Shown in pieces: positions 3,806 to 19,214 of a DNA stretch of 37,626 nt (positions are counted from its first letter, which is position 1; every line of letters starts with the position of its first letter). A model generated the notes under the pieces. It was not told where the DNA came from. It was given only the letters and a program-made list of their open reading frames with translations, and made no database searches. The translations under genes were made by a program, and so were the position numbers. The DNA comes from Deferribacteraceae bacterium. GTDB lineage: Bacteria > Chrysiogenota > Deferribacteres > Deferribacterales > JAISNW01. The DNA is taken from contig JAIRQX010000108.1 of the NCBI GenBank assembly GCA_031256375.1, positions 1-37,626 on the forward strand. The letters run 5' to 3'.

Positions 3806-3812
3806 AAATAGC

Positions 3813-4166
3813 ATGAGAGTGCGCAGAGTAACCAGCGGCGACTGGACATTCGGTCAGGGGGCTGCAAACTACGCAACAGGCGGCGAGGCTGTGCGACAGC
3901 TTATAATAACCCGACTGAAATCTTTTAAATATGACTGGTTTCTTGATATGTCAGCGGGAATAGACTGGATAGGGATATTTGGCAATAAAAATACAATGGG
4001 GATTATCCGCCGTGAAGTATGGCGCGTAATCAGAGATACTGAAGGAATAAGGGATATAAAAGATATATCAATCAATGTGATTGACAGAAAAGCGACAATT
4101 ACCGTGAGCGTGGTAACCGCTTACGATTCAGAGTTCACGGAAACGATAGATATTGGAGCGGCTTAA
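3813..4166 (+). CDS. Baseplate wedge protein, gp25/GpW-like
   Basis: This 117-residue protein matches the gp25-like (lysozyme-fold without activity) wedge family that starts sheath assembly around the baseplate. Visible features are GDWTFGQG near the start, an AVRQLIITRLKSFKYDWFLD segment, GIDWIGIFGNK and a C-terminal IKDISINVID strand followed by the usual beta hairpin. Upstream in-frame codons to 3729 are repeat sequence, and the ATG at 3813 follows aaaggta. It lies directly before baseplate J with one base between stop and start, as in P2-like and related operons. Confidence 0.8.
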   Translation: MRVRRVTSGDWTFGQGAANYATGGEAVRQLIITRLKSFKYDWFLDMSAGIDWIGIFGNKNTMGIIRREVWRVIRDTEGIRDIKDISINVIDRKATITVSVVTAYDSEFTETIDIGAA

Positions 4167-4167
4167 T

Positions 4168-5346
4168 ATGAAACCCATAATAGACCAGACCGGAATACAA
4201 ATACAGACGTTTCAGGAAATATATGATGAACTTGCGGGAGCGTTAAAAGAGATTTACGGCGCGGACATCAACCTTGAGCAGTCAACCCCTGACGGGCAAA
4301 GGATAGGGATTGAGGCTAAACTTATGCTTGATTTGCAGGCGGCGCTAGCTGCGCTTTATAACGAGTTAGACCCTGATTTTGCCGCAGGTCAGGCGTTAAA
4401 CAGGCTTATAAAACTGTGCGGAATCAGGCGTAAACCAGCGGCGCGTTCCAGTGTGGATGTAACAATAACGGCTCAATATAATCTTACATTGCCTATAAAT
4501 TACACAGTACAGGATATAAACGGGAAAAACTGGGTGACAGCCTCTGAATATACGCTAACACAGGGCATAAATGCTGTAACAATGCACTCGGAAGAGTGGG
4601 GCAATATTGACGCCGGAGCTAATACAATAAATAAACCTGTGACTGTTATTCTTGGCGTACAGTCAGTCACAAACCCAGAACCCGCAATACCCGGCGCAAA
4701 CGAGGAAACAGATCAGCAGTTGCGTTTAAGAAGAAACAGAAGCCTTGAAAACGCTGCATATTCATCAACAGGGAGTTTGTATGCAAAACTATATAATATC
4801 AGCGGAGTAACAAAGTTAAAAATATATGAGAACAGCGCTGACATTTATAACGATACATTATCACTAAACCCGCATTCACTCTGGATTATAATTGAGGGAG
4901 GAGATATATCAGACATAGGTGAAATTATAGCCAAAAACAAAACAGCCGGAACAGGGCTTAAAGGAGGTATGACGGCAACATTCACAGAAAATATCTATAA
5001 GCCTGACGGAACGATGTTTTATATGGTTCATACGATGTCTTTTGACAGACCTGTTTTAACACAGCTTTATATCCGCGTAATTATAAAAAGAAAATTGATA
5101 AATTACCCTGTTGATACCGAAGCGATAAAAGAGAGTATAGAACGCGAAAACGATTTTGATATAGCTGAAAATGCGGTTGTGACAAGCCTATACGCGGCAA
5201 TATACAAAGCCGGGAATACATTTATAGCTTCTGAACTTCAGATAAGCCGTGACGGTGTAAATTGGTCGGGTGAGTTTATAGAGGCGGGGGCTTGGGAACG
5301 GTTTGTTGTGTCTTATGAGAATATAGAAATAACGGAGATTATATAA
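4168..5346 (+). CDS. Baseplate J family protein
   Basis: This 392-residue protein is a baseplate wedge subunit of the gpJ/gp6 family. It has the characteristic start (IDQTGIQIQTFQEIYDELA, then INLEQSTPDGQ), the D-x-x-x-A-x-G-Q-A-L-N-R-L element, and the central segment GANEETDQQLRLRRNRSLEN that is nearly diagnostic of the family, followed by a repeat-like beta domain and FTENIYKPDG. The ATG at 4168 is chosen over the TTG at 4153 because GGAGCGG lies upstream. Length is normal. Its neighbours gp25 and the gpI-like protein complete the wedge. Confidence 0.9.
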   Translation: MKPIIDQTGIQIQTFQEIYDELAGALKEIYGADINLEQSTPDGQRIGIEAKLMLDLQAALAALYNELDPDFAAGQALNRLIKLCGIRRKPAARSSVDVTITAQYNLTLPINYTVQDINGKNWVTASEYTLTQGINAVTMHSEEWGNIDAGANTINKPVTVILGVQSVTNPEPAIPGANEETDQQLRLRRNRSLENAAYSSTGSLYAKLYNISGVTKLKIYENSADIYNDTLSLNPHSLWIIIEGGDISDIGEIIAKNKTAGTGLKGGMTATFTENIYKPDGTMFYMVHTMSFDRPVLTQLYIRVIIKRKLINYPVDTEAIKESIERENDFDIAENAVVTSLYAAIYKAGNTFIASELQISRDGVNWSGEFIEAGAWERFVVSYENIEITEII

Positions 5347-5347
5347 G

Positions 5348-5505
5348 TTGTTATATCAGCGGCAAGGACGCCGCGTGAACGAAGCGAAGTCCTGCGGAGG
5401 GCAATAGTTACGCCATAGAGCGATACCGCCGTCTGCAAGACCGCCGCCGCGCACGGATGGGCGTTATTTATTCGCGCAGGACGCGCGGCGAAGCTAAGGA
5501 GATTA
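5348..5505. repeat. Hairpin-string intercistronic element (R3)
   Basis: The gap between baseplate J and the gpI-like gene is a near full-length relative of R1: gcgtgaacgaagcgaag (5373), ggcaatagttacgccatagagcg (5400-5422), gtctgcaagaccgccgccg (5431) and cacggatgggcg (5452). It ends in a caggacgcgcggcg module before AAGGAG, which serves the ATG at 5511. Confidence 0.75.
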
Positions 5506-5510
5506 TATAA

Positions 5511-6242
5511 ATGGGCAACGACTTTATAAAAGAATATCTCGCTATGCTGATACTGCAATATTCCGATATGCCAAAAGCAAAAGGCGAGATGACGGCAATA
5601 ATTGGGAACTTCAGTAAAATTTATTCATTATATGAAAATTTCCGCAGTGAGTTTGACCTTGACGCGGCGACAGGGAAACAACTTGATTTAATAGGAAAAA
5701 TTATAGGCTTACAGCGTAATGTACCGTATGCAATCGCAAAGAGATTTTTCGGGTTCTCAGAGTATGAGAAATCAGGCGCGTTTGCTGATAAAAACGACAG
5801 TTTTTTAGCCGTATATCCTTTTGCTGATAAATTCAGCCCGAAATATACAAATTTTCAGATGGATGACTATACATATAGACTGTTTATAAAGCTGAAAATA
5901 GCGAAAAATATATCATCCGTATATATGATTAGCGGTGAACGCACAGGCATTCAGGAAGCGGCGCTAAATGCTTTCGGCGCAGCGGCGTATGTAATAGATA
6001 ACCTAAACATGACACTGACAATTTATATTAACAATAAGATTGCGGAATTAATTGAATACATAGTTAGTTTAGATTTGCTTCCGCGCCCGCAGGGAGTGAG
6101 CTACAAATATGTTATTATTGCTGATATAGGCTATACGCTGGGGTTTTCAGACAACCAATATTCATTGGGTTTTTCAGATAAATTTAATATGGGTGTGAAA
6201 GGCGGGAAATTTGCGAAGAAATTGCAGAGAGGAGCGGAATAG
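5511..6242 (+). CDS. DUF2612 / gpI-like baseplate protein
   Basis: This 243-residue protein fits the DUF2612 family, which takes the place of P2 gpI after baseplate J and links the wedge to tail fibres. The signature element FDLDAATGKQLDLIGKIIGL is near residues 45-65, followed by DDYTYRLFIKLKIAKN and, near the C-terminus, LDLLPRPQGVSYKYV. The last residues contain a doubled YTLGFSDNQ/YSLGFSDKF motif. The ATG has an AAGGAG at good spacing. The gene ends at the start of another hairpin-string gap. Confidence 0.8.
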   Translation: MGNDFIKEYLAMLILQYSDMPKAKGEMTAIIGNFSKIYSLYENFRSEFDLDAATGKQLDLIGKIIGLQRNVPYAIAKRFFGFSEYEKSGAFADKNDSFLAVYPFADKFSPKYTNFQMDDYTYRLFIKLKIAKNISSVYMISGERTGIQEAALNAFGAAAYVIDNLNMTLTIYINNKIAELIEYIVSLDLLPRPQGVSYKYVIIADIGYTLGFSDNQYSLGFSDKFNMGVKGGKFAKKLQRGAE

Positions 6243-6412
6243 AGCGATAGCAATGGCGTGCGCCCACAGGAAGTGGGCAAGACATCCGCCAGACGAAGCC
6301 GCAAAGCGGCTGACTGAATGGCGAAGCGGCGTACCGCAAGGCGGATTTACTCCGCCGAGGATAAAGCCGCGTGTGCGAAGTGAGCGCACGGATGCGCGAA
6401 CGGAGAAAAATA
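6243..6412. repeat. Hairpin-string intercistronic element (R4)
   Basis: This gap holds at least five successive mini-hairpins: CCCAC-aggaa-GTGGG (6263), GCCGC-aaa-GCGGC (6298), GGCGG-atttact-CCGCC (6341), GTGCG-aagtgag-CGCAC (6373) and GCGCacggatGCGC (6384). The last shares the cacggatg module of R1-R3. The tail-fibre gene has its own AAGGAGG after the element. The gap stays open as a short plus-strand reading frame, but its low-complexity charged product is not credible. Confidence 0.7.
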
Positions 6413-6428
6413 AATAAGGAGGCGCATA

Positions 6429-7619
6429 GTGTCTAAAATAGTCAGACCGGATAAGAATGTAGGGACGTTTGCCCAAAATGCGACAGGTTATAACCGGACA
6501 GTGTTCGGGGAAACAACACAAAGTGACGATTTAACTGAAAATCTCAGCGAGAAATTTTTAAAGGGCTGGGAGATTGTGAACGTGAATGAAGCCCCGACAA
6601 AACAGGATTTTAATGCAGGATTTTTTACTCTCAGTAAACTTACAGCGTATTTATATCAGGCGGGAATCCCTGAATGGAATGTACATCAGGAATATCACGC
6701 TGATTCAGTGACAATTCACGATGGAGTGATATACCAATCGCTTGCTGATAATAATATTGGCAATAACCCGGGCGCGTCATCTGAAAAGTGGCGGAAAATA
6801 ATACAAGACTATACTGAAACTCCTGACGCTACAGAGACGGTGAAAGGGAAAGCCGCGTTTGCCACCTTGGAAGAAGCGCGTGAAGGGATAATTGACAATA
6901 AAATAATGTCTCCGGCACAGGTAAAAGATGTTACATCTTCAGCAATATATGGCGCGAAAGTTGGCGATGTTTTACTGCCTGTTGTTGACGGCATTTTAAT
7001 GATTCCTGATATGACAACGCCCGGATTTGAACCGTATCAGACGGTTATAAGATCATCAGAAAAATGGACAGCGCCATATGATGGTGTTTATGAGTTTGAG
7101 CTTTGGGGTGGCGGCGGCAGCGGCGGCGGTGGCGGTATGTGGGTTAGTGAATTGGGTGGCGGCGGCGGTGGCGGCGGCGGTAGCGGTTATTATGTGCGGG
7201 ATGCAAAGGTATTAATGGCGCAGCAAACATATAATGTTGTTATTGGCGAGGGTGGGGTTTACGTTGATAGTACGTCTGTTAATGGTAAAAACGGCGGATT
7301 TACAGATATATCGGCGCTGGGGTTAAGGGCGCTTGGAGGTAACGGCGGTTATGGCGGCGGTAATGGCGGTGATGGCGGTGGCGGTGGAATTGGCGGCATC
7401 GGTGGCGTTAATGGCAGTAACGGCGGCAATGGTTCTTACGGTTATTTAGGCGGCACTGCGGGATTTAGTTCAATCGGAGGCGGAGGCGGTGGCGGCGGAA
7501 GAAATGTAGCGAATTACGGTAATGGAGGAGGAGGTGCAACCGGATATGGCGATTGGACTGATTATTATAGTGGATCTGGCGGTTTACCCGGCGCAATTAG
7601 AATAACAAGAGTTTCATAG
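6429..7619 (+). CDS. Tail fibre / adhesin with glycine-rich C-terminus
   Basis: This 396-residue protein is the likely receptor-binding fibre. The N-terminus (1-70) is probably the baseplate attachment part. Residues 75-120 resemble a small carbohydrate-binding-like module (SVTIHDGVIYQSLADNNIG ... SEKWRKI). Residues 125-170 contain the tail-fibre element VKGKAAFATLEEAREG ... IMSPAQVKD. The C-terminal ~180 residues are extremely Gly-rich, with many GGGGG runs, as in glycine-rich-domain fibre tips that form polyglycine-type lattices. Translation starts with GTG, supported by AAGGAGG eight bases upstream. The Gly-rich part is encoded by GGC/GGT-rich DNA prone to length change. Confidence 0.8.
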   Translation: MSKIVRPDKNVGTFAQNATGYNRTVFGETTQSDDLTENLSEKFLKGWEIVNVNEAPTKQDFNAGFFTLSKLTAYLYQAGIPEWNVHQEYHADSVTIHDGVIYQSLADNNIGNNPGASSEKWRKIIQDYTETPDATETVKGKAAFATLEEAREGIIDNKIMSPAQVKDVTSSAIYGAKVGDVLLPVVDGILMIPDMTTPGFEPYQTVIRSSEKWTAPYDGVYEFELWGGGGSGGGGGMWVSELGGGGGGGGGSGYYVRDAKVLMAQQTYNVVIGEGGVYVDSTSVNGKNGGFTDISALGLRALGGNGGYGGGNGGDGGGGGIGGIGGVNGSNGGNGSYGYLGGTAGFSSIGGGGGGGGRNVANYGNGGGGATGYGDWTDYYSGSGGLPGAIRITRVS

Positions 7620-7628
7620 GGAGGATAT

Positions 7629-8315
7629 ATGCCGATATTTTATACGAAAGATGGAATGGCAGAGGTTTGGGATGTACAGCCGGAAGGGTATTTAACTCAG
7701 GAAGAATACCTTGCAACGGTATCTTCTGAGAAAAAAGCGTTAGATGAAATTACCGGTTATAAACGTATGCTTGCCGCAATGGATTACTACGCACTGAAAC
7801 ATTATGAGCGGCAAATTTCAGACGCTGAGTTCGCAGTATATGAAAAAATGCGGTTTGATTTAAGAAATAAAATAAGAACATTAGAGGGCAAACCGGCGCT
7901 GCCCAATGTACAGAAAAAAGAATATGCGCTTAAATCACATAATCACACAGTATCGCAAATAATTGATTTTTCGTCTGCTTTTGCTCCTATGCCACAACCT
8001 ATATATTTTGTATATGAAGAAGGATTTTATGATGACAAAGGCAACTGGTATGAAGAAGTAGGATGGTGGGATAATGGCGGCACATTTCATTCATATCCGA
8101 CGGGATTAACAATGCATGATTATAGAGTTTCTTTTCTCGGGGGATGGGCAAGAATAGTTGTTACACAAAGCAAAAACGGCAACTATATGGCTAATTTACC
8201 AAATGACGGTACATGGGCGTATTATATGAAAGGTAGCGCCGGGATAGCTGCCGGCGGCGCAGCAGTAAAGGCTAATTCTGCTGATGACGCAGGTTTTGCA
8301 TGGAGGATAAAATAA
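7629..8315 (+). CDS. Tail fibre protein with N-terminal chaperone-like module
   Basis: This 228-residue protein combines two parts. Residues 30-95 contain a helical hairpin, L...MDYYALKHYERQISDAEFAVYEKMR...IRTLE, of the type found in tail-fibre assembly proteins and repeated in the next gene. After it, YALKSHNHTVSQIIDFSSA is a classic fibre linker, and the end (GGWARIVVTQSKNG ... GFAWRIK) looks like a small fibre tip domain. It could bind a host surface sugar or protein as an alternative fibre. GGGAGG precedes the ATG. Its stop overlaps the next start (TAATG). Confidence 0.65.
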   Translation: MPIFYTKDGMAEVWDVQPEGYLTQEEYLATVSSEKKALDEITGYKRMLAAMDYYALKHYERQISDAEFAVYEKMRFDLRNKIRTLEGKPALPNVQKKEYALKSHNHTVSQIIDFSSAFAPMPQPIYFVYEEGFYDDKGNWYEEVGWWDNGGTFHSYPTGLTMHDYRVSFLGGWARIVVTQSKNGNYMANLPNDGTWAYYMKGSAGIAAGGAAVKANSADDAGFAWRIK

Positions 8316-8677
8316 TGGAAAAAATAATACACAGACAGGATAACACTTTTGTAATTGAGCATAATGGAATGCCTTATCATTTAACGTCAGCGGCAGAGCC
8401 GGAGCGGGGTATATACGCCGCTACGCTTGATCTGTACAAAACGGACAAGACGGAATTTGAAGAGGAATATCCGCCTGAACCGCCGACACCGGAAGAGATC
8501 CGCAAAGCTGGTATATTAGCAGAAATAGCAGAGTTAAAAAAGTTTCTGACAGATACAGACTACCGCGCAATTAAGCATTTTGAAGGGTTTTTAACTGAAG
8601 AGGAATATGAACCTTACAAACAGGAGCGGAAAAAAGCGCGTGACAAGATCAAAGCGCTTGAAGCGGAGTTAATATGA
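8315..8677 (+). CDS. Tail fibre assembly chaperone-like protein
   Basis: This 120-residue protein has a short N-terminal beta part, a Pro/Glu-rich linker (YPPEPPTPEEIRKAG) and a C-terminal helical hairpin, LTDTDYRAIKHFEGFLTEEE...YKQERKKARDKIKALE. That hairpin is the typical end of tail-fibre assembly chaperones ('TDY..iK..EG...eey...R..wRd.I..Le') and repeats the module in the protein before. The ATG at 8315 overlaps the upstream stop and has GGAGG before it; the ATG 15 bases upstream lacks this. It overlaps the next gene by 4 bp (ATGA). Confidence 0.7.
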   Translation: MEKIIHRQDNTFVIEHNGMPYHLTSAAEPERGIYAATLDLYKTDKTEFEEEYPPEPPTPEEIRKAGILAEIAELKKFLTDTDYRAIKHFEGFLTEEEYEPYKQERKKARDKIKALEAELI

Positions 8678-9057
8678 ATTTTTTTACTGCTGAAAAAATT
8701 ACGTATTTCATAATCATAGCGGTTTTCATTTTTTTGTTCGCCTTCATCGGTTGCGAAGAATGGCGTATCGCAAGGCTTAACGCCGCGCTTGATAAATCAA
8801 ACACGGAAACCGCTATTGCAAAGCATGACGCGCAAATGTGCAGAGGTACAATAGACAGACAGAATGAGTTAATTTCTGCGCACGCTATGGATATGGAAAA
8901 GAGCAAAGGTGAGTATGAAAAAAACGTTGCGGAGTTAAGGGCGGAAAGCGGTAAAAAACGTACAGAGGTTGAAAAACTATATGCTCATGGGATAAGTTGC
9001 AATCAGGAGCTTTACTTGATAAAAAGCCAGTTGGATGGGTTTTATGCGGTGTATTAA
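8674..9057 (+). CDS. Rz-like inner-membrane spanin (i-spanin)
   Basis: This 127-residue protein has one N-terminal membrane anchor (about residues 8-26) and a long periplasmic coiled-coil (about 30-115) with regular Leu/Ala and charged residues, as in i-spanins. These span the periplasm and join an outer-membrane lipoprotein to fuse the membranes at the last step of lysis. The Rz1-like partner starts inside its 3' end in another frame, the usual nested or overlapping arrangement. It has two extra Cys residues (CRGTIDR and SCNQEL). Sequence is not recognisably close to a named Rz, so the call rests on topology and context. Confidence 0.7.
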   Translation: MNFFTAEKITYFIIIAVFIFLFAFIGCEEWRIARLNAALDKSNTETAIAKHDAQMCRGTIDRQNELISAHAMDMEKSKGEYEKNVAELRAESGKKRTEVEKLYAHGISCNQELYLIKSQLDGFYAVY

Positions 9058-9256
9058 TTTATTGCTATTGATGATATGTACAGCCTGTGCGGCAAAGCCT
9101 GTTTACGTTTATCAGGATATTTACATACCGCAGAAATGTAGAATTGAAACGCCTGTAAAGCCTGTAAAATCTGATAACGCAGGGATTATGCTGAATGACT
9201 TAATACAATATACGCATGAGCTTGAATACGCTCTGAATGCGTGTAAGGGGGAATAA
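9035..9256 (+). CDS. Rz1-like outer-membrane spanin lipoprotein (o-spanin)
   Basis: This 73-residue protein has a short hydrophobic signal (INLLLLMICTACA) with a lipobox-like end at TAC, giving a lipidated Cys, then a KPVYVYQDIYIPQKC segment rich in Pro, Tyr and Lys. It overlaps the i-spanin by 23 bases in the +1 frame. Translation could start at 9035 or at the ATG at 9044. The lipobox is imperfect (Cys in place of Leu at -3). The presence of an o-spanin implies an outer membrane in the host. Confidence 0.65.
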   Translation: MGFMRCINLLLLMICTACAAKPVYVYQDIYIPQKCRIETPVKPVKSDNAGIMLNDLIQYTHELEYALNACKGE

Positions 9257-9480
9257 AACTATACGGGCTGGAGCAGGCTCCCCCCGTATGCCCCCCACGA
9301 TAATGGCATTAATCAGAAAAAGCGTGGTCTTTCTGATTAATGATACAGATTACGAAGGCGCAAAGCGCCGCACGTGCGACGAAACGCAGTGAGGAGCAGC
9401 GAAGCAAGCGCCATTGAGCGGGATTTATTCCCGCGAAATAGAGCGAAGCGCTCGAGTGTGAGCGCAGTGAACATTACGAG
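9257..9480. repeat. Intergenic hairpins and hairpin-string element (R5)
   Basis: No gene is seen here. Bases 9261-9288 form ATACGGG...CCCGTAT enclosing GGAGC-ag-GCTCC. Bases 9307-9342 are a perfect 13-bp inverted repeat (CATTAATCAGAAA/TTTCTGATTAATG) with a 10-base loop and no following T run. Bases 9355-9475 are a string of mini-hairpins (GGCGC-aaa-GCGCC, GCGGG-atttatt-CCCGC, GAGCG-aag-CGCTC) and the module gtgagcgcagtgaac related to R1-R3. Confidence 0.7.
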
Positions 9481-9491
9481 AGGAAAATAAC

Positions 9492-9578
9492 ATGAACAGG
9501 GTTATTGATTTTGTTTTCCTGATTGGCGCGGCAATGGCTGCGGCAGTGAGTTATGTAAGTTATCTGATAGGGTTTTAA
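9492..9578 (+). CDS. 28-residue single-span membrane peptide in lysis cassette
   Basis: This short ORF encodes MNRVIDFVFLIGAAMAAAVS followed by YVSYLIGF: a single hydrophobic segment with a charged N-terminus. GAGAGGAAA lies 7-10 bases before its ATG, and its stop is immediately followed by the ATG of the holin-like gene, so the two are translationally coupled. It could be a holin partner, antiholin or pinholin-like peptide, or a leader that sets holin translation. No family is recognised. Confidence 0.5.
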   Translation: MNRVIDFVFLIGAAMAAAVSYVSYLIGF

Positions 9579-9893
9579 ATGCCTGTACACATGACTTTTG
9601 AGCATATAGTTTTTTTTATGATTATTTCTGTTTTAGGCGGCGTTGTAGCGTTTTTCAGGAAGCATAAAAACGGAGAAACAGGAACGGAAAGAGTCGCAAT
9701 AGCGGCGGGATATGTTTGTGTTTCTGTTTTTGCCGCTCTTCTGACGCACTACGCGCTGACATATCTGGAAGTACACGAGGGACTGCACAGGGCTGCGATA
9801 GGCCTGGCGTCATATATGGGCGGCAGTTTGCTTGACGCGGCGGAGAAAAGAGGGATTAAACATATTGAAAATGGTAAACATGTAGAAAAGTAA
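9579..9893 (+). CDS. Holin-like membrane protein
   Basis: This 104-residue protein has three hydrophobic segments (about 7-26, 42-65 and 71-88), a charged loop (RKHKNGETGTER) and a basic tail, matching holins of the three-span class such as lambda S-like families. The last segment, HRAAIGLASYMGGSLLDAAEKR, resembles the third span of that class. It would form the membrane holes that release the endolysin. Its start abuts the stop of the small peptide, and the endolysin begins 15 bp after its stop. Confidence 0.7.
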   Translation: MPVHMTFEHIVFFMIISVLGGVVAFFRKHKNGETGTERVAIAAGYVCVSVFAALLTHYALTYLEVHEGLHRAAIGLASYMGGSLLDAAEKRGIKHIENGKHVEK

Positions 9894-9908
9894 CAGGGGG
9901 AAAAGATA

Positions 9909-10250
9909 ATGAAATTAGGGGATTATCAAGAGATTTTTAGTTCAAACATAGCAAAATTATTAGTATATGCTCAAACGCAGGGGTACGGCTGCCGGTTACG
10001 TGAAGTAGAACGGACAGAATATCAGCAAAAAGAGTATTTGCGTATAGGAAAAAGCAGAACATTAAACTCCATGCACATTAAGAGTCTTGCTGCGGATATT
10101 TATTTTACAAAGGACGGGAAACTTATTGAAACAAAAGACGGCTTGAAACAAATCGGAGCGTACTGGGAAAGTCTAAGCAAAAATAACCGCTGGGGCGGGA
10201 ACTTTACAACACTGGTTGACTGCCCTCATTTTGAGATGATGGAAAATTGA
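9909..10250 (+). CDS. Endolysin, M15-family peptidoglycan peptidase
   Basis: This 113-residue protein is an M15-type metallopeptidase that cuts the peptide part of peptidoglycan (L-Ala-D-Glu or D-Ala-D-Ala type). The two zinc-site motifs are intact: SMHIKSLAAD gives H56 and D63 (SxHxxxxAxD) and DCPHFE gives H107. There is no signal peptide, so release depends on the holin. AGGGGGAAAAG precedes the ATG. It is a compact single-domain form like those of many phages of Gram-negative hosts. Confidence 0.85.
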   Translation: MKLGDYQEIFSSNIAKLLVYAQTQGYGCRLREVERTEYQQKEYLRIGKSRTLNSMHIKSLAADIYFTKDGKLIETKDGLKQIGAYWESLSKNNRWGGNFTTLVDCPHFEMMEN

Positions 10251-10282
10251 AATTATATTACAGACTTGAATATGAGGAATAA

Positions 10283-11509
10283 ATGAACGCGACTTCGGAA
10301 CACTTTGAGGAAATATCAGTAACAAAGCCTTTTATGCGTTTTCTTAGGGAAAACGCGCGTTATAAAGTAGCTTATGGCGGCAGAGGAGGGGCGAAATCTG
10401 AATCTATCGCACGGATACTTCTCGCAAAAGCTGTGAAACAACAGATGCGTATTCTATGCACCCGCCAATATCAGGCATCAATACGCGACAGTGTTCATAA
10501 GCTGTTATCAGATATAATCCGTTCATATCCCGTCACACTTGATCCGTATTTCAAGATTACCAACGATTCAATAGTCTGTAACGGCAGCGGTTCGGAATTT
10601 ATCTTCAAAGGGCTGCAAAACATAATTGAAATAAAATCGATGCAGGCGGTTAATATTTGCTGGGTAGAGGAGGCTGTAAACGTTACAGCCGACAACTGGA
10701 ATATACTGATACCGACCATCCGCGCAGAAAACTCTGAAATATGGGTGAGTTTTAACCCTATAAATATCACAGACCCGACATATCAGCGGTTTGTATTAAA
10801 CAGGGCAAGCGATGATCAGATTACCCTTTCTGTAACTTACAGAGATAACCCGTTTTTCCCCGGTGTGCTGCGCCGTGAGATGGAGCAGTGCAAAAAGAAT
10901 GATTACGACCTTTATCTGCATATCTGGGAGGGTAATCCGAAAACATTGTCTGACGCAATTATTTTTAAAGGCAAATATGAGATAAAGGAATTTCAAACAA
11001 TGCCATGCCCGCGTTGGAGGCTGGGAGCGGATTGGGGGTTTGCCGCCGATCCGTCAACGCTTATTGCCATGTATATAAATGAAAACAATTTATATATACG
11101 TCACGAGGTTTACGGACATGGCATTGAAATACGCGATATGGAACAATTCTGGAAGCCTGTACTTGATAAGACAGGGAAACAAACTGTTTACGCCGATTGC
11201 GCAAGACCTGAGACAATATCGGACGCGAACAGGTATTCCGGAACAACCGTAACCGCCGCAAAAAAGTGGGCTGGCTCCGTTGAGGACGGCATTGAGTTCA
11301 TCCGCGGAAAATTCGGGAAAATATATATCCACCCCGAATGCAAACATACCGCTGAAGAGTTCGGCAGGTACAGCTACAAAGTTGACCGGAAAACGGAAGA
11401 GATATTGCCGGTTGTGGCTGACGCTTTTAATCATTGCATAGACGCTGTACGGTACGGGCTTGACGGATATATACGAAATAATAGCTGTGACTACGGGGAG
11501 TTATTATAG
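10283..11509 (+). CDS. Terminase large subunit
   Basis: This 408-residue protein is the DNA-packaging motor ATPase and nuclease, of the PBSX/Terminase_3 type. The Walker A motif is YGGRGGAKS (32-39), the Walker B is ICWVEEA, and the nuclease domain has its acidic residues in RLGADWGFAADPS (D250), VYADCARPE and the final NHCIDAVRYG. All key residues are present, so the enzyme looks functional. GAGGAA lies before the ATG. It is the last phage gene: no small terminase or portal is beside it, and the next gene is a host gene on the other strand. In most phages the terminase is next to the portal, so either the prophage map is circularly permuted or genes are missing. Confidence 0.92.
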   Translation: MNATSEHFEEISVTKPFMRFLRENARYKVAYGGRGGAKSESIARILLAKAVKQQMRILCTRQYQASIRDSVHKLLSDIIRSYPVTLDPYFKITNDSIVCNGSGSEFIFKGLQNIIEIKSMQAVNICWVEEAVNVTADNWNILIPTIRAENSEIWVSFNPINITDPTYQRFVLNRASDDQITLSVTYRDNPFFPGVLRREMEQCKKNDYDLYLHIWEGNPKTLSDAIIFKGKYEIKEFQTMPCPRWRLGADWGFAADPSTLIAMYINENNLYIRHEVYGHGIEIRDMEQFWKPVLDKTGKQTVYADCARPETISDANRYSGTTVTAAKKWAGSVEDGIEFIRGKFGKIYIHPECKHTAEEFGRYSYKVDRKTEEILPVVADAFNHCIDAVRYGLDGYIRNNSCDYGELL

Positions 11510-11684: not shown

Positions 11685-12557
11685 CTAAAATCCATGCTCT
11701 GATGGCTCAATCCGTCTGATTATCCGGTTTTGAGTATTTGGACTGCGTATTTTATTAATATATTCATATGCTTTTACCTTTTCGCCGCAAATATAATAAA
11801 AGAGGGCAAGATCAGCAAAATTGGAATCCGGATGGTTTAAGCTGTAATCTTTATAGAATGCGATTTCGTCTTCATATATGAGGGAAGGACTTTCACGGAA
11901 GAGCTTAATCAGCTCTTCCGGCGTTGCAATATCAAAGACAGTAACGGCTTCTCCGGAAAAAACGATCGGAGTTTCTATCTCTTTATAGATAGCCCTGATA
12001 TTTGTAATAATCCTTTTGCCAAAAAAAATTTGAAGCTCTTCCGGCGTTGCAATATCAAAGACAGTAATAAATTTGCTGTCAGCAACATCTGAATTTACAT
12101 TACTTTTATAAATAGTATCCAAAACTTCAAAAATATACTGACGGCGTTTTGTGTCAATAATTTTGTCGGCATACTTTTCAGCTTTTACCTTATCGCCGCG
12201 TTCAGCGTATAAGCAGGAAAGTTCCGCGTAATTAATATCCGGATTTCCCAAAGCCCGTTTTTTAGCGGAATCATAAAATTCCTGTTCCTTTTTCTCTTGC
12301 GATGTCTGCATCCTGCTCAGAACGCTGACATTTGTATTCGGATAATTTTCTTTGGTATAATCAACATAACCGTACTTATGTTTCAGTTCTTCAGTTGTGG
12401 CAATATCGTAAATTGTAAAAGTTTCGCCCGTATAAGAAAGTTCTGAGGTTTCAGAGTCTGTTTCCCCTTTTATTTTCAATCCGAGGTTTGCAATAAAAAA
12501 AAACGCGACAAAAAAAACAGCAATAACGGAAGCGGATATAATGAGCAATTTTTTCAT
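11685..12557 (-). CDS. Membrane-anchored protein with three FDIATPEEL-type repeats
   Basis: This 290-residue protein has an N-terminal membrane anchor or signal (residues 3-27) and then lies outside the cytoplasm. It contains three copies of a short motif: TIYDIATTEEL (48-58), TVFDIATPEEL (165-175) and TVFDIATPEEL (206-216). Two TPR-like helical units, each with an E/GDKVKA.(K/E)Y element, lie at about 108-136 and 246-274. The second and third motifs share a 34-base identical DNA stretch (11911-11944, 12034-12067), showing recent duplication or conversion. No family is recognised. It follows the U32 gene on the same strand. A promoter-like TTGCAA or TTGAAA with TATACT/TATAAA lies just upstream. 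Confidence 0.75.
   Translation of the reverse strand: MKKLLIISASVIAVFFVAFFFIANLGLKIKGETDSETSELSYTGETFTIYDIATTEELKHKYGYVDYTKENYPNTNVSVLSRMQTSQEKKEQEFYDSAKKRALGNPDINYAELSCLYAERGDKVKAEKYADKIIDTKRRQYIFEVLDTIYKSNVNSDVADSKFITVFDIATPEELQIFFGKRIITNIRAIYKEIETPIVFSGEAVTVFDIATPEELIKLFRESPSLIYEDEIAFYKDYSLNHPDSNFADLALFYYICGEKVKAYEYINKIRSPNTQNRIIRRIEPSEHGF
11911..12067. repeat. 34-bp identical direct repeat inside a gene
   Basis: Bases 11911-11944 and 12034-12067 are identical over 34 bases and encode the FDIATPEEL motif of copies 3 and 2 of the protein above. The spacing is 123 bp, a multiple of three, so recombination between them would remove 41 codons in frame. Confidence 0.85.
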
Positions 12558-13890: not shown

Positions 13891-13919
13891 ATTATAAGTT
13901 TATGGTATTTATACATCAA
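13891..13919 (-). promoter_or_regulatory. Promoter of U32-family gene
   Basis: On the minus strand TTGATG (13914-13919) and a perfect TATAAT (13891-13896) are 17 bases apart. The start point falls near 13884, about 66 bases before the ATG at 13818. The -35 box overlaps the first base of the PBP1A start codon and the polymerase footprint overlaps the opposing promoter. Confidence 0.65.
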
Positions 13920-16279
13920 TGTTAAAATTACTTAAAAGTTTTTTTGGAAGCAGAATTTTACGTTACACCGTTTTGGCTGTATTTTTAGGTGTTTTTGCCG
14001 GCGTTTCCTTAACCGGTTATCACCTTTACAAATTGGCGCATACACTGCCCTCTGTGGAAGAAATTACGCGGTACCGTATGAGTCAGCCGTCAATGTTGTA
14101 TGATGAAACGGGCGCAGTGATTGCAGAGCTTGGCAATGAGCGCAGATACCCGATCCCTATAAGCAAAATGCCGGTGTATCTCCAGCAGGCTGTCATCGCT
14201 ACAGAGGATGCGCGCTTTTATGAGCATAGCGGCGTTGATTTTTTAGGTATATTCCGCGCAATGCTTACAAATGTTAAATCAGGACGGTTTGCCGAAGGCG
14301 GAAGCACACTAACCCAACAGCTTGTCAAAAATATCTTTTTCACTAAGGAAAAGAAGCTTATACGTAAATATAAAGAGGCTGTGCTTGCGTACCGTCTGGA
14401 TAAATATCTTACAAAAGATGATATACTTGAGTTTTACCTTAACTACGTCAACTTCGGCAGAGGCGGGTACGGCGTGCAGGCCGCCGCCGTCAACTATTTC
14501 GGCAAAAATGCCGCAGATTTGAATCTCACTGAGTGCGCCCTTTTGGCTGGGATACCAAAAGCTCCGGGGATTTATGCGCCCCACCTGAACCTTGACCGCT
14601 CTCAGCAGCGCCGCAATCATGTGCTCCTGCGGATGTATGAAAACGGCTATATCAATGAAGACGAATACCTTAAATCTATAGAGGAACCTATAGTCATCAC
14701 TGAAACTATACCGCTCAGGCTACGACACGCGGGGTATTTCCTTGATTTTGTGTTGCGTTATCTGTCTGATGAACTGGAGATAAGCGAGCCCCAGAATAAA
14801 GGGCTTAAAGTTTATACAACACTGAATGTAACCTTTCAGGATAAGGCGGAGGACGCTGTACGCAACAATCTTTTGAAAACATCCAAACGTCAGGGTTATT
14901 TCGGACCTGCCGGAAAGATATCAGACTCGCCGGACGAAGAGATTGTGCTTGCCGGAAATGTTGACGGCGATCCGGTGGTAATTAATAATTCGCCGGAATC
15001 CCTTTTGCAGATTCCCCCTTACCTTGCTGTTTTGGGGTTTAAAAAGGCTGTTGCCGTTAAAGTTGATGATCAGCAGGTCAGTATAAAGATTGATAATAAT
15101 ACTTCAGGCGTTTTGAAACTTATAGACAACCGCTGGGCGAGAGCTGAAAACAGCAACAGCGGACAGCTTAACAGCTTTAAGACAATCCTTGAGCCGAATG
15201 ATGTAATTTATGTGCTTCCCAAGGAGAAAGAACAGGGCGTATATCTGTTGGAGCAAGATCCGCCGATGGACGCGGGGCTTGTCGCTATTGATTCAAAAAC
15301 CGGCGCGATTAAAGCTATGGTCGGAGGGTTTGCTTTTGAAAAAACTATGTTTAACCGCGCCGCACAGGCAAAACGGCAGGTCGGCAGTTCGTTTAAACCT
15401 ATCGTTTATGCCACGGCAATTGAATACGGTATGCAACCGATGACAAAGATACTTGACGCGCCGGTAATAACTTCTCCCAATGAACGCGGGAAGGTTTGGC
15501 GCCCGAAAAACTTTGAGGACAAATATTATGGGGAAACTACTATTAAAGAGGGGCTTACCCGCTCAAGAAACATCATAACCATAAAAATAGCGGAAAGGCT
15601 TGGAATACGCAGAGTCTTGGATATGGCGCAAAAGTTCGGCATTACCTCCGATCTTCCGGCTGATCTTTCCATAACTATCGGTTCCGGTTCTGTATCTTTG
15701 CTTGAAATGGTTTACGCTTACTCCGTGTTTCCGAATATGGGCACGCGCCCGGCAAACCCATATTTTGTAACAAAGATTGAGGACTCTGAAGGAAATATTC
15801 TTTATGAAATGAGTCCCCCCGCACATGTAAGAGTTATCCGTCCGGATACCGCTCATATTATGACAGATATCCTTATAAATGTCGTTGAAAACGGCACAGG
15901 CGCCCGCGCAAAGGCGATCCCCCGCCCTATCGGCGCAAAAACAGGCACCACTAATGAAAACCGCGATACTTGGTTTATTGGTTTTATGCCAAACTTTGTG
16001 GTAGGCGTTTGGATGGGATTTGATGAATTCCGCGAACTGGGATCGGAGACAGGGTCTCAGGCTGCCGCCCCTGTTTGGGTAGAGTTTGTTAATTCGGTAT
16101 TGCCTTATATACCGAGGGCAGTTTTCCCTGTTGCTGACGGAGTTATATACCGAAAGGTTGATTTGATCAATTGGGAGCCGACAGATAAACTGGAATCGGA
16201 AAATATCTCGTTTGAACCTTATTCTTTCACGGATATACAGGACGATTTTTCAGACGAACTCATTTCGCAAGCGCAATAG
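13919..16279 (+). CDS. mrcA: Penicillin-binding protein 1A, bifunctional transglycosylase/transpeptidase
   Basis: This 786-residue class A PBP polymerises glycan strands and cross-links peptides outside the inner membrane. It has an N-terminal membrane span (about 14-35), a GT51 domain with ATEDARFYEHSGVD (catalytic E96) and GGSTLTQQLVKN, and a transpeptidase domain with SSFK (S490-K493), SRN (549-551) and KTGTT (674-678). A beta-rich insert lies between about residues 300 and 460, as in PBP1A. Length is normal for the family. The Shine-Dalgarno is weak, but the promoter at 13856 and the short leader fix the start. Confidence 0.95.
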   Translation: MLKLLKSFFGSRILRYTVLAVFLGVFAGVSLTGYHLYKLAHTLPSVEEITRYRMSQPSMLYDETGAVIAELGNERRYPIPISKMPVYLQQAVIATEDARFYEHSGVDFLGIFRAMLTNVKSGRFAEGGSTLTQQLVKNIFFTKEKKLIRKYKEAVLAYRLDKYLTKDDILEFYLNYVNFGRGGYGVQAAAVNYFGKNAADLNLTECALLAGIPKAPGIYAPHLNLDRSQQRRNHVLLRMYENGYINEDEYLKSIEEPIVITETIPLRLRHAGYFLDFVLRYLSDELEISEPQNKGLKVYTTLNVTFQDKAEDAVRNNLLKTSKRQGYFGPAGKISDSPDEEIVLAGNVDGDPVVINNSPESLLQIPPYLAVLGFKKAVAVKVDDQQVSIKIDNNTSGVLKLIDNRWARAENSNSGQLNSFKTILEPNDVIYVLPKEKEQGVYLLEQDPPMDAGLVAIDSKTGAIKAMVGGFAFEKTMFNRAAQAKRQVGSSFKPIVYATAIEYGMQPMTKILDAPVITSPNERGKVWRPKNFEDKYYGETTIKEGLTRSRNIITIKIAERLGIRRVLDMAQKFGITSDLPADLSITIGSGSVSLLEMVYAYSVFPNMGTRPANPYFVTKIEDSEGNILYEMSPPAHVRVIRPDTAHIMTDILINVVENGTGARAKAIPRPIGAKTGTTNENRDTWFIGFMPNFVVGVWMGFDEFRELGSETGSQAAAPVWVEFVNSVLPYIPRAVFPVADGVIYRKVDLINWEPTDKLESENISFEPYSFTDIQDDFSDELISQAQ

Positions 16280-16288: not shown

Positions 16289-17200
16289 ATGTTAGAATTA
16301 GCCGTATCAAGTAAAAAAATGCAGAAAATTGACAGGCTGCTTGATAAAGCATCCCAAACCAACACCGCTGTTTTAATTATTGGAGAAAAAGGGGTGGGGA
16401 AAAGCGCGTATGCGCAGCGGATACATGGTTTCAGCCCGCAAAAAAACTTACCTTTTGTACTTTTTAAAGCGAACAGATATGACGGCGATATAAGCGGGTG
16501 TATAGTTAAGGCGGGCGGCAGCACACTATTTATATACGAAGTGGCTTATATGCAGCTAAAAGATCAGGTTGAGCTTATGAAATTCCTTATAAGCGCGAAT
16601 CATTCAAATAAATTCCGTTTAATAGCGTCAACTTCCGTCCCCCTTGAGCCTCTTGTAAAAGACGGTTCATTTATGGAAGACCTCTACTTTTACCTGCGCG
16701 TCATGCAGATACGCATCCCCGCTCTGAGGGAACGCAAAGAAGATATCCCTTCGCTTATTGATTCTATGTCGGAAAAGATATCCGGCGAATACGGCAGAAA
16801 TTACCGGTTTGACAATGAGAGCAAAAAAAATATTTCATCAAAACCGTGGAAAGGAAATATAATTGAACTGGAGAAATATATCCGGTTTATTTTGGACAGC
16901 GCCGGTACCGATACAATAACCGCAGCTGAACTTGAAAGGATTGATGCGGCCGCAAGAGAAATGAAAACGGCGGAAAGTTTAAGTGAAAAACTTTACAGCA
17001 TTGCCTGCGAATTCTTGGAGACAGCGAAACAAAGTTCCACTTACACCGTTTTTGAACAATATAAAAAACTGGTAACTCCGCCGGTTTTGCGCGCCGCCCT
17101 GCATATTGCGGACAACAATAAATCTATGGCTGCCAAACTCTTGGGGATAAACCGCAACACTTTAAAAAAGAATATGAGAGATTATAATATTGAAGATTGA
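16289..17200 (+). CDS. Degenerate NtrC-like AAA+ regulator with Fis-type HTH, no GAFTGA
   Basis: This 303-residue protein has the AAA+ core and DNA-binding end of sigma54 activators but no receiver domain. Walker A is present as GEKGVGKSAYA (about 31-41), the ALRERKEDIPSLI element with the arginine finger is present, and the C-terminus has an intact Fis-type helix-turn-helix (NKSMAAKLLGINRNTLKK). However, the segment that should carry GAFTGA is deleted: about 25 residues between FVLFKANRYDG and GGSTLF are lost. The Walker B LFLDE has become LFIYE. It is therefore unlikely to remodel sigma54 polymerase and may act as a sigma70 repressor/activator or a partner subunit. It begins 9 bp after the PBP1A stop and overlaps RNase R by 11 bp. 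Confidence 0.8.
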   Translation: MLELAVSSKKMQKIDRLLDKASQTNTAVLIIGEKGVGKSAYAQRIHGFSPQKNLPFVLFKANRYDGDISGCIVKAGGSTLFIYEVAYMQLKDQVELMKFLISANHSNKFRLIASTSVPLEPLVKDGSFMEDLYFYLRVMQIRIPALRERKEDIPSLIDSMSEKISGEYGRNYRFDNESKKNISSKPWKGNIIELEKYIRFILDSAGTDTITAAELERIDAAAREMKTAESLSEKLYSIACEFLETAKQSSTYTVFEQYKKLVTPPVLRAALHIADNNKSMAAKLLGINRNTLKKNMRDYNIED

Positions 17201-19214
17201 TAAGCGCCGAAAAGATCGCGGCGGCGGCAAAAAACCGGAGGGTTCCTGTTTAACGCTGACCGGTTGTATAACGGCGCATCCTGACGGATACGCTTTTTTT
17301 ATGCCGGACGGCGGAGGCGAAGATATCTTTGTGCCGGCGTCAAAACTTTATCCGGCGATACATGGAGATCGTGTAAAAATAAAAAAAATATTTTTACGCG
17401 GACGCCCTGAAGGTCATGTTGTCAGCGTTCTTGAACATGGGTTGGGGATTATTGTCGGGCGTATTGAAATACGCCGCGGTTATTATAACGTTGCGCCGTT
17501 CAACCGGCGGTTTCCGTACACTCTGTTTGTGCGTAAAAAAGACGGCGATAATTATAGAGACGGCGATATTGTTGTATGTGGTATAAAACGCTATCCGGAT
17601 CGTAAAAACGGCGCGGAAGGGGAGATAACAAAACATCTCGGCAATATAGAGAATAAGGGAATAGAAAACCTTATCGTTATAAACAAATACGGTCTGACTC
17701 GGGAGTTTTCAGCAAAGGTCAGCGCTCAGGCTGACGAAGCCGCGCAATCGCTGCCAGTTAAAGGGGAAAATAAAGGACGTACAGATTTAAGGGGACTTTT
17801 TACCGTCACAATTGACGGTGAAACGGCGCGGGATTTTGATGACGCTATAAGCGTAAAGAAGTGTAAAGACGGCTGGACCCTTTATGTCCACATTGCCGAT
17901 GTGGCGCACTATATCCGTCCCGGCGCGGAGCTGGATGAAGAGGCGTACCGGCGCGGAACCAGCGTTTATTTCCCTGAATTTGCAATTCCTATGCTGCCGG
18001 AAGCGCTTTCAAATAATGTATGCAGCCTCTGTCCCGAAGAAGACCGGTTTGCGGTAAGCGTTAAAATAAAGTACAGCAAAACAGGGGAACGGCTGGGTTG
18101 TTCATTTTACAATGCTGTAATACGAAGTGACCGCAGACTTACATACGGCTATGTAAACGAATTGCTTGCCGGAAGAGAAGTATCTGACCGTAAGGTAACT
18201 ACGCTTGCCCAAAAAAGCGCGGAGCTTATGGAAATAATCAGTAACCGGCGCAGAAAACAGGGCGCTATAGATTTTGATCTGCCGGAGGCGGAGTTTTGTT
18301 TTGATAAAAACGGAGAGATAACGGATATTTTTCCCGAAGAACGCGGCATAAGTGAACGGATAATTGAAAATTTTATGATAGAAGCAAACGAAGCCGCGGC
18401 GGAACTGCTTGAAATAAAAACTTCAGAAGGGAACCCGCGCCGCAAGGGAAGAGGTCGTTTACAGACTGATACTCCGGCAAATGCTAAAGGTTTTGCGGCA
18501 ATTTTCCGTGTTCACGATTCCCCTGATATGGGAAAAATATATCAGTGGGTCAAATATGCCCGTATTTTTGGCGTACCGGCGGGTAAAATCCCGGGTAAAA
18601 TTGAACCGCAGACTGTACAGAGATGGTTTGCCGCAACAGAAGGGAATTCATGTTCGTATCTTCTTAAATCAATGCTTGTGCGCAGTATGCAGCGCGCCGG
18701 ATATTCCTGTGAAAACATAGGACATTTCGGGCTTGCCTCTGATTGCTACACACATTTTACAAGCCCTATAAGGCGTTATCCTGACCTGATTGTACACAGG
18801 CTGCTTAAACGGCATCTCTTCGGGGAGAGTATTGATATTCCGGCAAGTTATGTAAAATCGGCGGCTATGCGCTCCTCTGCGACAGAACGCAGCTCAGAGG
18901 ATGCTGAACGTGAAATATCGCTTTATAAAAAACTGATATATTTGCAAAACAACGCTGAAAATGTATATGACGCCTATATAAACAGGGTTACAGCGGACGG
19001 GTTTTATGTATTTCTTGAAAAACTATTGATGACAGGATTTGTGGATATTGCCGCGCTGCCGAAAGGTCGTTGGTTTGCCGATCCGGGCAGTTGCGTAATC
19101 TATAAGCGGAACGGTTTTGCCTATAAATTAGGCGATCATGTGCGAATAAACTGGATAAGCTCTGACTGGGACAGGCTTGAGGCTTTGTTTGCTCCGGCGC
19201 ATTTAAAAAATTGA
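17190..19214 (+). CDS. rnr: Ribonuclease R
   Basis: This 674-residue 3'-5' exoribonuclease degrades structured RNA and helps tmRNA-linked quality control. It has an N-terminal cold-shock/OB domain (about 22-85: LTGCITAHPDGYAFFMPDGG), an RNB catalytic domain with DGETARDFDDAISV near residues 208-222 holding the metal-binding Asp residues, HIADVAHYI, HFTSPIRRYPDL, and a C-terminal S1 domain (from about residue 590). It is shorter than the 813-residue E. coli enzyme, lacking the long basic tail and N-terminal HTH. The TTG start overlaps the upstream regulator by 11 bp, so translation is probably coupled. Confidence 0.93.
   Translation: MKIDKRRKDRGGGKKPEGSCLTLTGCITAHPDGYAFFMPDGGGEDIFVPASKLYPAIHGDRVKIKKIFLRGRPEGHVVSVLEHGLGIIVGRIEIRRGYYNVAPFNRRFPYTLFVRKKDGDNYRDGDIVVCGIKRYPDRKNGAEGEITKHLGNIENKGIENLIVINKYGLTREFSAKVSAQADEAAQSLPVKGENKGRTDLRGLFTVTIDGETARDFDDAISVKKCKDGWTLYVHIADVAHYIRPGAELDEEAYRRGTSVYFPEFAIPMLPEALSNNVCSLCPEEDRFAVSVKIKYSKTGERLGCSFYNAVIRSDRRLTYGYVNELLAGREVSDRKVTTLAQKSAELMEIISNRRRKQGAIDFDLPEAEFCFDKNGEITDIFPEERGISERIIENFMIEANEAAAELLEIKTSEGNPRRKGRGRLQTDTPANAKGFAAIFRVHDSPDMGKIYQWVKYARIFGVPAGKIPGKIEPQTVQRWFAATEGNSCSYLLKSMLVRSMQRAGYSCENIGHFGLASDCYTHFTSPIRRYPDLIVHRLLKRHLFGESIDIPASYVKSAAMRSSATERSSEDAEREISLYKKLIYLQNNAENVYDAYINRVTADGFYVFLEKLLMTGFVDIAALPKGRWFADPGSCVIYKRNGFAYKLGDHVRINWISSDWDRLEALFAPAHLKN

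What the first reader, a model, noticed from the sequence alone, without database searches (positions are those of the whole stretch)
16289..17200. NtrC-like regulator without GAFTGA loop and with altered Walker B, between PBP1A and RNase R
The protein keeps Walker A, the arginine-finger segment and a Fis-type HTH, but the sigma54-contact loop is deleted and the Walker B Asp is Tyr. It cannot work as a standard sigma54 activator. Its tight place between PBP1A and RNase R, with an 11-bp overlap with the latter, is conserved-looking and suggests a specialised regulator or structural partner.
Basis: partly seen in the sequence, partly recalled or inferred. Interest (0 to 1): 0.5.

Follow-up and report, generated by a model that had tools for sequence, protein, structure and literature searches.

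The report
Stripped NtrC regulator in gut Deferribacterota
In gut-dwelling Deferribacterota a two-component switch beside a cell-wall gene appears to have lost its sensor kinase, its receiver and its sigma-54 motor parts, leaving a small protein with a DNA-binding domain and an intact nucleotide-binding loop that selection still seems to preserve.

Summary
The 303-aa ORF between PBP1A and RNase R keeps Walker A and a Fis-type HTH, lacks the GAFTGA loop, and has Tyr for the Walker B Asp. Its arginine-finger segment is recognisable, but both arginines are gone. The pre-sensor-I insert, sensor II Arg and receiver are also missing.

Orthologues explain this. Six other families of the order have uvrB-PBP1A-kinase-regulator-rnr (split in one), with a full-length, intact NtrC in 23 of 23 copies aligned. 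Three families, by genome statistics the insect-, vertebrate- and shrimp-gut ones, have stripped forms (21 of 21). The kinase orthologue is in 25 of 26 genomes of the full-length families and was found in none of 21 stripped ones. Walker A survives in 21 of 21 stripped copies, as does the recognition-helix Arg. In two Mucispirillaceae genera the gene is under purifying selection (omega 0.03-0.07). rpoN and intact paralogues remain.

Best explanation: a kinase-free, sigma54-independent DNA-binding regulator whose AAA+ core binds but does not hydrolyse nucleotide. Targets and ligand are unknown. GAFTGA-less NtrC proteins are known; this fuller stripping looks like a new variant.

The parts
16289..17200 (+). 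stripped NtrC-type regulator, 303 aa: AAA+ core, lid, Fis-type HTH; no receiver
   Evidence: ORF; Pfam; 47-sequence alignment; AlphaFold2 model pLDDT 92.3; nearest solved folds FleQ, NtrC1, FlrC, NtrX, VpsR AAA+ domains
16382..16405 (+). Walker A GEKGVGKS (residues 32-39); G,G,G,K kept in 21 of 21 stripped orthologues
16466..16498 (+). site of the lost L1/GAFTGA loop (about residues 60-70); Walker A to Walker B spacing 41-46 residues in f1 against 64 in 26 of 26 full-length copies
16523..16543 (+). Walker B remnant TLFIYEV (residues 79-85); Asp replaced by Tyr83
16595..16615 (+). site of the lost pre-sensor-I insert, L2 (about residues 103-109); Walker B to sensor I 29-32 residues in f1 against 41 in 26 of 26 full-length copies
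16670..16696 (+). arginine-finger segment FMEDLYFYL (residues 128-136), both Arg replaced
16718..16750 (+). start of lid, PALRERKEDIP (residues 144-154); second Arg and Asp kept in 47 of 47 orthologues aligned, first Arg in 40 of 47
16853..16870 (+). sensor II segment GNIIEL (residues 189-194), Arg lost
17084..17185 (+). Fis-type HTH (HTH_8, residues 266-299), best conserved part against full-length orthologues of the order (48% mean identity against 34% for the AAA+ core)
13919..16279 (+). PBP1A, upstream neighbour in 17 of 17 stripped loci of the order where the contig shows it (window included)
17190..19214 (+). RNase R, overlapping by 11 bp from the TTG start; downstream neighbour in f1 (4 of 4), in f6 genera g8 and g14 (5 of 5), not in f6 genus g12 (0 of 10), and in 23 of 23 full-length loci of the order fetched

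Best explanation
The gene is the remnant output of a NtrB/NtrC-type two-component system that once sat as uvrB-PBP1A-kinase-regulator-rnr. In gut-associated Deferribacterota the kinase and the receiver domain were lost. So were both inserts by which NtrC-type motors engage sigma54 RNA polymerase, and the residues for ATP hydrolysis between subunits. SHOWN by sequence: the orthology, the losses, retention of the P-loop and HTH, and purifying selection in two f6 (Mucispirillaceae) genera. INFERRED: the protein binds DNA through its conserved HTH at sites descended from those of the full-length regulator. It represses or activates sigma70-type promoters rather than sigma54 ones. Nucleotide binding at the P-loop, without hydrolysis, sets its fold or oligomeric state in place of phosphorylation. 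Its operon neighbours (PBP1A, RNase R) are possible but unproven targets.
For: Conserved locus. Kinase orthologue (165 bits or more, nearly whole query) in 25 of 26 genomes of full-length families and 0 of 19 genomes of f1 and f6; the two f9 genomes show only catalytic-part matches of 64 bits or less. Residue table over 47 orthologues: Walker A G/G/G/K 21 of 21 stripped; HTH Arg 21 of 21; finger 1 in 1 of 21; finger 2 in 0 of 21; L1 Phe and Thr 0 of 21; each of these 26 of 26 in full-length copies. HTH identity to full-length copies of the order 0.47-0.50 against 0.22-0.32 for the AAA+ core; between full-length families 0.58 and 0.69. Omega of the three closest pairs 0.029-0.065 (g12) and 0.055-0.068 (g14), adjacent PBP1A 0.074-0.108 and 0.075-0.080. 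rpoN present. 28 of 28 paralogues inspected, of 34 found in 10 stripped-lineage genomes, keep both fingers. Confident AAA+-lid-HTH model. Precedent: R. capsulatus NtrC lacks GAFTGA, acts with sigma70 and is reported to need ATP binding rather than hydrolysis (PMC10274813, passages seen); TyrR, DhaR and HupR are reported sigma70 dependent (PMC3162934, passages seen).
Against: No DNA target, promoter or ligand is shown. No consistent sigma54 promoter and no clear footprint was found at the operon. Selection could not be measured in the window's own genus: no second genome of it is among the 45 of the order held. The one same-genus pair in f1 (G002/G003) is saturated at synonymous sites and its pN/pS (0.27) exceeds that of PBP1A (0.09), so constraint looks looser in f1. 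Full-length controls are tighter still (omega 0.019-0.023, their PBP1A 0.034-0.053), so even the f6 copies are looser in absolute terms. The P-loop glycines could be kept for folding alone. The same paper cites a GAFTGA-less Vibrio regulator (printed as VspR) that does not need ATP, and Caulobacter NtrC needs its Walker B Asp (PMC10274813).
Confidence: 0.6

Rival explanations
1. A decaying gene: after the kinase was lost in symbionts with reduced signalling, the regulator lost function and survives only because its coding sequence lies between, and overlaps, genes that need the operon kept.
For: The stripped families are gut-associated by the genome match; a fall in signal-transduction genes is reported for Termitispirillum (PMC12887300, passage seen). 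The f1 same-genus pair evolves faster than its PBP1A, and stripped copies have higher omega than full-length controls. f9 copies carry low-complexity inserts.
Against: Omega 0.03-0.07 in the closest pairs of two f6 genera, below that of the adjacent PBP1A. Open frames in 21 of 21 copies. In f6 genus g12 RNase R is not next door (0 of 10), so polarity on rnr cannot hold the frame there. Recognition-helix Arg kept in 21 of 21.
Confidence: 0.12
2. A DNA-tethered partner of intact enhancer-binding proteins: it joins their mixed rings or competes for their sites and damps sigma54 transcription.
For: rpoN and intact paralogues coexist in the same genomes. The AAA+ core is the most constrained of the large domains in g12 (pN/pS 0.14 against 0.17-0.21 for linker, lid and HTH), as an interaction surface would be.
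Against: It lacks the fingers and L1, and its HTH follows its own full-length orthologue. No direct evidence of mixed rings was sought or found.
Confidence: 0.1
3. A second-messenger receptor like FleQ or VpsR: the P-loop region binds cyclic di-GMP or another nucleotide and switches a sigma70 repressor or activator.
For: Nearest solved folds include FleQ (Z 24.3) and VpsR (Z 23.1), both with PDB titles that mention c-di-GMP. The window holds an ORF at 32701-33741 that reads like a receiver-HD hydrolase (not family-searched).
Against: FleQ's c-di-GMP contact residues were not tested here; many AAA+ regulators score about the same.
Confidence: 0.13

Closest known systems
NtrC of Rhodobacter capsulatus and Caulobacter (PMC10274813, passages seen)
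   Same: NtrC-type AAA+ with Walker A and HTH, deletion in L1 covering GAFTGA, action at sigma70 promoters
   Different: They keep the receiver, the kinase NtrB and phosphorylation; Caulobacter NtrC also needs its Walker B Asp. Here receiver, kinase, pre-sensor-I insert, Walker B Asp and both fingers are gone.
TyrR, DhaR and HupR (PMC3162934, passages seen)
   Same: paralogues of sigma54 activators that lost sigma54 contact and are reported sigma70 dependent
   Different: They are described as carrying substitutions or a small deletion in the loop; recalled: each keeps an N-terminal regulatory domain. The window protein has none.
VpsR (7v2b) and FleQ (6jdl), AAA+ regulators with non-canonical action
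   Same: fold: Z 23.1 and 24.3 with the model
   Different: both keep an N-terminal domain (recalled)
Pfam PF14532 Sigma54_activ_2
   Same: 78.6 bits against a cut-off of 25, profile positions 3-138 of 138
   Different: a domain family only; it names no function
Full-length orthologue in other families of the order, e.g. L036:4676-6064
   Same: same place, related HTH and linker, same rnr neighbour
   Different: receiver, GAFTGA, FLDE, both fingers and an adjacent soluble kinase all present

Membership tests
sigma54-dependent enhancer-binding protein (NtrC, group I) | AAA+ domain with lid and Fis-type HTH | tested here: met
sigma54-dependent enhancer-binding protein (NtrC, group I) | GAFTGA loop | tested here: not met
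   absent in the window and in 21 of 21 stripped copies; present as G[AS][FY]TG[AS] in 26 of 26 full-length copies
sigma54-dependent enhancer-binding protein (NtrC, group I) | Walker A | tested here: met
sigma54-dependent enhancer-binding protein (NtrC, group I) | Walker B Asp and paired arginine fingers | tested here: not met
   LFIYEV and FMEDLYFYL
sigma54-dependent enhancer-binding protein (NtrC, group I) | receiver domain and cognate histidine kinase | tested here: not met
   no receiver; no kinase orthologue found in the four f1 genomes, 78-96% complete
GAFTGA-less sigma70-acting NtrC relatives (TyrR, HupR, R. capsulatus NtrC) | NtrC-type AAA+ and HTH with L1 deleted or altered | tested here: met
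GAFTGA-less sigma70-acting NtrC relatives (TyrR, HupR, R. capsulatus NtrC) | N-terminal regulatory domain (recalled feature) | tested here: not met
   ORF begins at the AAA+ domain
GAFTGA-less sigma70-acting NtrC relatives (TyrR, HupR, R. capsulatus NtrC) | regulation of sigma70 promoters | not testable with these tools
   needs in vitro transcription or a deletion strain
Pfam PF14532 Sigma54_activ_2 | score over the curated cut-off | tested here: met
   78.6 against 25 bits

The most novel reading that the evidence does not exclude
Animal-gut Deferribacterota converted a phosphorylation-driven sigma54 motor into a hydrolysis-dead, nucleotide-gated DNA-binding switch, more than once: in the Termitispirillaceae/Mucispirillaceae line and separately in the shrimp-gut line. 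Each time they shed kinase, working receiver, the sigma54-contact loop and the fingers, but kept the P-loop, the lid motif and the recognition-helix Arg beside PBP1A or RNase R.
Probability: 0.3. Interest if true: 0.68.

Novelty: new variant of a known kind. Interest (0 to 1): 0.52.

Why it matters
It gives a phylogenetic series (outgroup, full-length families, stripped lineages) of how a sigma54 activator is taken apart and what survives. It makes a testable case that an AAA+ transcription factor can work by nucleotide binding alone. It links a cell-wall synthase locus to a regulator kept in three gut families after its sensor was dropped. It also warns annotators: such genes score as sigma54 interaction domains although the parts that engage sigma54 are gone.

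Tried and rejected
Forty-two of those rows served as the alignment for the fold.

Sigma54 promoter scan upstream of uvrB, PBP1A and the regulator: a few single-genome hits at p 0.05 or less, nothing consistent across families; no evidence either way. Footprint of uvrB upstream regions in f6: nothing clear, and my slices of minus-strand loci were probably misplaced, so inconclusive.

Number of origins: f1+f6 sister support 82/60; unresolved in the quick tree; f1+f6+f9 on one side 53/38. One to three strippings remain possible. PMC12887300 reports the insect-gut clade as sister to Mucispirillaceae (passages).

FleQ-like c-di-GMP binding was considered but not tested by residues. The paralogue motif scan needed three passes because of strand and pattern errors; one search printed nothing and was redone. 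NCBIfam gives no equivalog over cut-off among the rows shown for the window protein or for the five full-length and stripped relatives and kinases scanned beside one another, so no name comes from there.

Papers searched for a prior description. None of the rows listed showed this locus; the lists were capped and the library lacks most subscription journals.

Full report
WHAT IS THERE. The ORF 16289..17200 (+) encodes 303 aa. Pfam finds Sigma54_activ_2 (residues 7-146), AAA_lid_14 (147-226) and HTH_8 (266-299), and no receiver. Nine bp separate it from PBP1A; RNase R overlaps by 11 bp from its TTG. The motifs are GEKGVGKS (Walker A), LFIYEV (Walker B), FMEDLYFYL (finger segment), GNIIELE (sensor II) and GINRNTLKKN (recognition helix). 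Assignment of fingers, sensors and L1/L2 to these segments rests on recalled PspF/NtrC anatomy applied to the alignment.

WHOSE GENOME. The window is contig C128 of genome G000 (1.95 Mb, 95.6% complete). G017 C1 2,234,389 stands in a table of PMC10344455 (passage) in a hydrothermal-vent column; the heading is cut there, and that it is Deferribacter desulfuricans is recalled. G003 (1.6 Mb, 260 contigs, 78%), G015 (one contig, 2,347,083) and G045 (1.3 Mb, 50 contigs, 90%) fit Termitispirillum reticulitermitis MS499-41 (1.58 Mb, 254 contigs, 78.6%), Mucispirillum schaedleri (2.35 Mb, circular) and 'Rimicarispirillum atlantis' (1.34 Mb, 49 contigs, 90.7%) in PMC12887300 (passages). So the order is Deferribacterales. 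By this inference, not by a name on any record, the window's family f1 is the insect-gut family Termitispirillaceae, f6 the vertebrate-gut Mucispirillaceae and f9 the shrimp-gut Microvillispirillaceae. Families f4 and f7 were not identified, so a free-living home for the full-length families is supported only for f2, f3, f5 and f8, each by one matched isolate.

THE LOCUS. In the 13 genomes of f2, f3, f4, f7 and f8 fetched, the order is PBP1A-kinase-regulator-rnr as far as contigs reach (G006 pieced from two contigs); uvrB precedes PBP1A where visible. In f5 the operon is split: regulator-rnr in 10 of 10 loci fetched, and uvrB-PBP1A-kinase in 8 of 8 fetched. f6 has PBP1A before the stripped regulator in 14 of 14 loci where the contig shows it, uvrB before that where visible, and rnr after it in genera g8 and g14 (5 of 5) but not in g12 (0 of 10). 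f1 has PBP1A-stripped regulator-rnr (rnr 4 of 4; PBP1A 3 of 3 where the contig shows it). The phylum-level outgroup f10 has PBP1A-kinase-full NtrC contiguous in 3 of 3, without rnr, so the full two-component form is the likely root state. In f9 a 604/621-aa degenerate orthologue sits beside rnr (2 of 2), with uvrB-PBP1A elsewhere and no kinase after PBP1A in the stretch seen. The kinase is HisKA + HATPase_c in the two scanned, and none of seven checked has a 19-residue window above Kyte-Doolittle 1.75, so it is probably soluble.

CO-LOSS. A whole-order search with the kinase (45 genomes) gives near-full-length matches of 165 bits or more in 25 of the 26 genomes of f2-f5, f7 and f8. The miss, G023, is 73% complete. 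In the 19 genomes of f1 and f6 there are none: best 83 bits, over the catalytic part. These genomes are 57-98% complete, so single absences mean little, but 19 of 19 do. In f9 the best is 64 bits. The same search finds the f10 kinases at only 100-112 bits over residues 93-307, so a very divergent orthologue would look weak; for those the locus context, not the score, identifies them.

RESIDUES. The 47-row table covers 26 full-length copies (23 of the order, 3 of f10) and 21 stripped copies (f1 4, f6 15, f9 2). Not in it: G023 (no orthologue identified), G035 and G037 (full-size hits of 482 aa, not fetched). Full-length copies keep the tested residues in 26 of 26, except the first lid Arg (19 of 26); the L1 aromatic is Phe or Tyr. 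Stripped copies: Walker A G/G/G/K 21 of 21; both lid Arg and the Asp 21 of 21; HTH Arg and Thr 21 of 21; HTH Asn 19; receiver Asp 0; L1 0; finger 1 in 1; finger 2 in 0; Walker B Asp 3; Walker B Glu 5; sensor I Asn 11 (all f6); sensor II Arg 15 (all f6). Walker A to Walker B spacing is 64 in all 26 full-length copies, 41-46 in f1, 51-53 in f6 and 73 in f9. Walker B to sensor I is 41 against 29-32 in f1, 31-37 in f6 and 60-78 in f9. Thus both inserts were shortened in f1 and f6. In f9 the loop residues are replaced and other insertions were gained.

CONSTRAINT. In f6 genus g12 (10 copies) the three closest pairs give omega 0.029, 0.059 and 0.065; in g14 (4 copies) 0.055, 0.066 and 0.068. Adjacent PBP1A gives 0.074-0.108 and 0.075-0.080. 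Median pN/pS over all pairs is 0.21 against 0.27 for PBP1A in g12, and 0.10 against 0.11 in g14. In g12 the AAA+ core has pN/pS 0.14, lid 0.21, linker 0.17, HTH 0.21 and the short N-terminal tail 0.58. Against my reading: the one f1 same-genus pair is saturated and looser (0.27 against 0.09 for PBP1A), and full-length controls are tighter in absolute terms (omega 0.019-0.023 where measurable, their PBP1A 0.034-0.053). Compared with full-length copies of the order, the HTH keeps 47-50% identity in f1, f6 and f9, while the AAA+ core keeps 32, 32 and 22%. Between full-length families the values are 58 and 69%, and f10 against them 38 and 58%. So within this class the HTH diverged little more than between full-length families, while the motor part changed a great deal.

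SPECIFICITY. rpoN is present: 43 of 45 genomes of the order are over cut-off for the DNA-binding domain (G001 is below cut-off and G043 has none), and G000, G001, both f9 and three f10 genomes for the core-binding domain (7 of 7). In ten stripped-lineage genomes 39 sigma54-activator domains were found at E 1e-10 or better: 34 score 174 bits or more, and 5, all at this locus, score 69 or less. Of the 34, 28 were inspected: 28 of 28 keep FRxDLxxR and 25 keep a GAFTGA-like loop (GAFTGA, GAYTGA, GAYTGS, GSFTGS or GAFTDA). The other three, all f1 and apparently one NtrX-like gene, read GAFTNA, GAFPGA and a deleted loop. The three other paralogues of G000 keep GAFTGA, LDE and both fingers. So loop drift is not unique to this locus, but the fuller stripping is, among those inspected.

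TREE. PBP1A+RNase R, 28 rows, LG+C20: f1 and f6 are sisters with weak support (82/60). The full-length families of the order form a group (94/95). f9 is on a long branch. A grouping of all three stripped families is neither shown nor rejected (53/38). The published sister relation of the insect-gut clade to Mucispirillaceae supports one stripping there (PMC12887300, passages).

STRUCTURE. AlphaFold2 with 43 rows gives pLDDT 92.3 and pTM 0.75: AAA+ core, lid, a long helix 212-247, HTH. Nearest chains are FleQ (6jdl, Z 24.3, rmsd 2.1, 216 aligned), FlrC, NtrC1, NtrX and VpsR (Z 23.1); the best rows are close to tied. A fold match shows no activity.

HOW IT MOST LIKELY WORKS. With no kinase, no receiver, no sigma54 loops and no trans-acting fingers, phosphorylation-driven remodelling of sigma54 polymerase is excluded on established mechanism (inference). 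What is kept suggests DNA binding gated by nucleotide occupancy. R. [quoted passage not shown] Targets are unknown; autoregulation of the PBP1A operon is a guess.

NOVELTY. GAFTGA-less relatives are well known (PMC3162934). I found no description of this locus in the rows listed. I rate it a new variant of a known kind.

Noticed in passing
window 2247-11509: ORFs that read like a tailed-phage or Mu-like block (baseplate-like, tail-fibre-like, terminase-like large subunit at 10283-11509) next to housekeeping genes; names are from reading, not from a family search.
   Followed up: no
window 11685-12557 (-): A 290-aa ORF with a signal-like N-terminus and three copies of a motif like TVFDIATPEEL.
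   Followed up: no
L215, L221, L228 (G001, G002, G003): A second enhancer-binding protein, NtrX-like by appearance, has a drifting loop: GAFTNA, GAFPGA, and loop deleted, while fingers and Walker B stay; a G000 gene on L226 that may be the same one has GAFTGA.
   Followed up: partly
L191 4939-6753 and L192 6831-8696: The f9 (probably shrimp-gut) orthologues carry AHN-type low-complexity repeats inside the AAA+ domain and a long degenerate N-terminus without the receiver Asp.
   Followed up: partly
L070 3426-5675: PBP1A of G033 reads as two ORFs (191 and 529 aa), a frame break or assembly error.
   Followed up: no
f5 genomes, e.g. L068 with L049: The uvrB-PBP1A-kinase-regulator-rnr operon is cut between kinase and regulator, the two halves at separate places in the genome.
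   Followed up: partly
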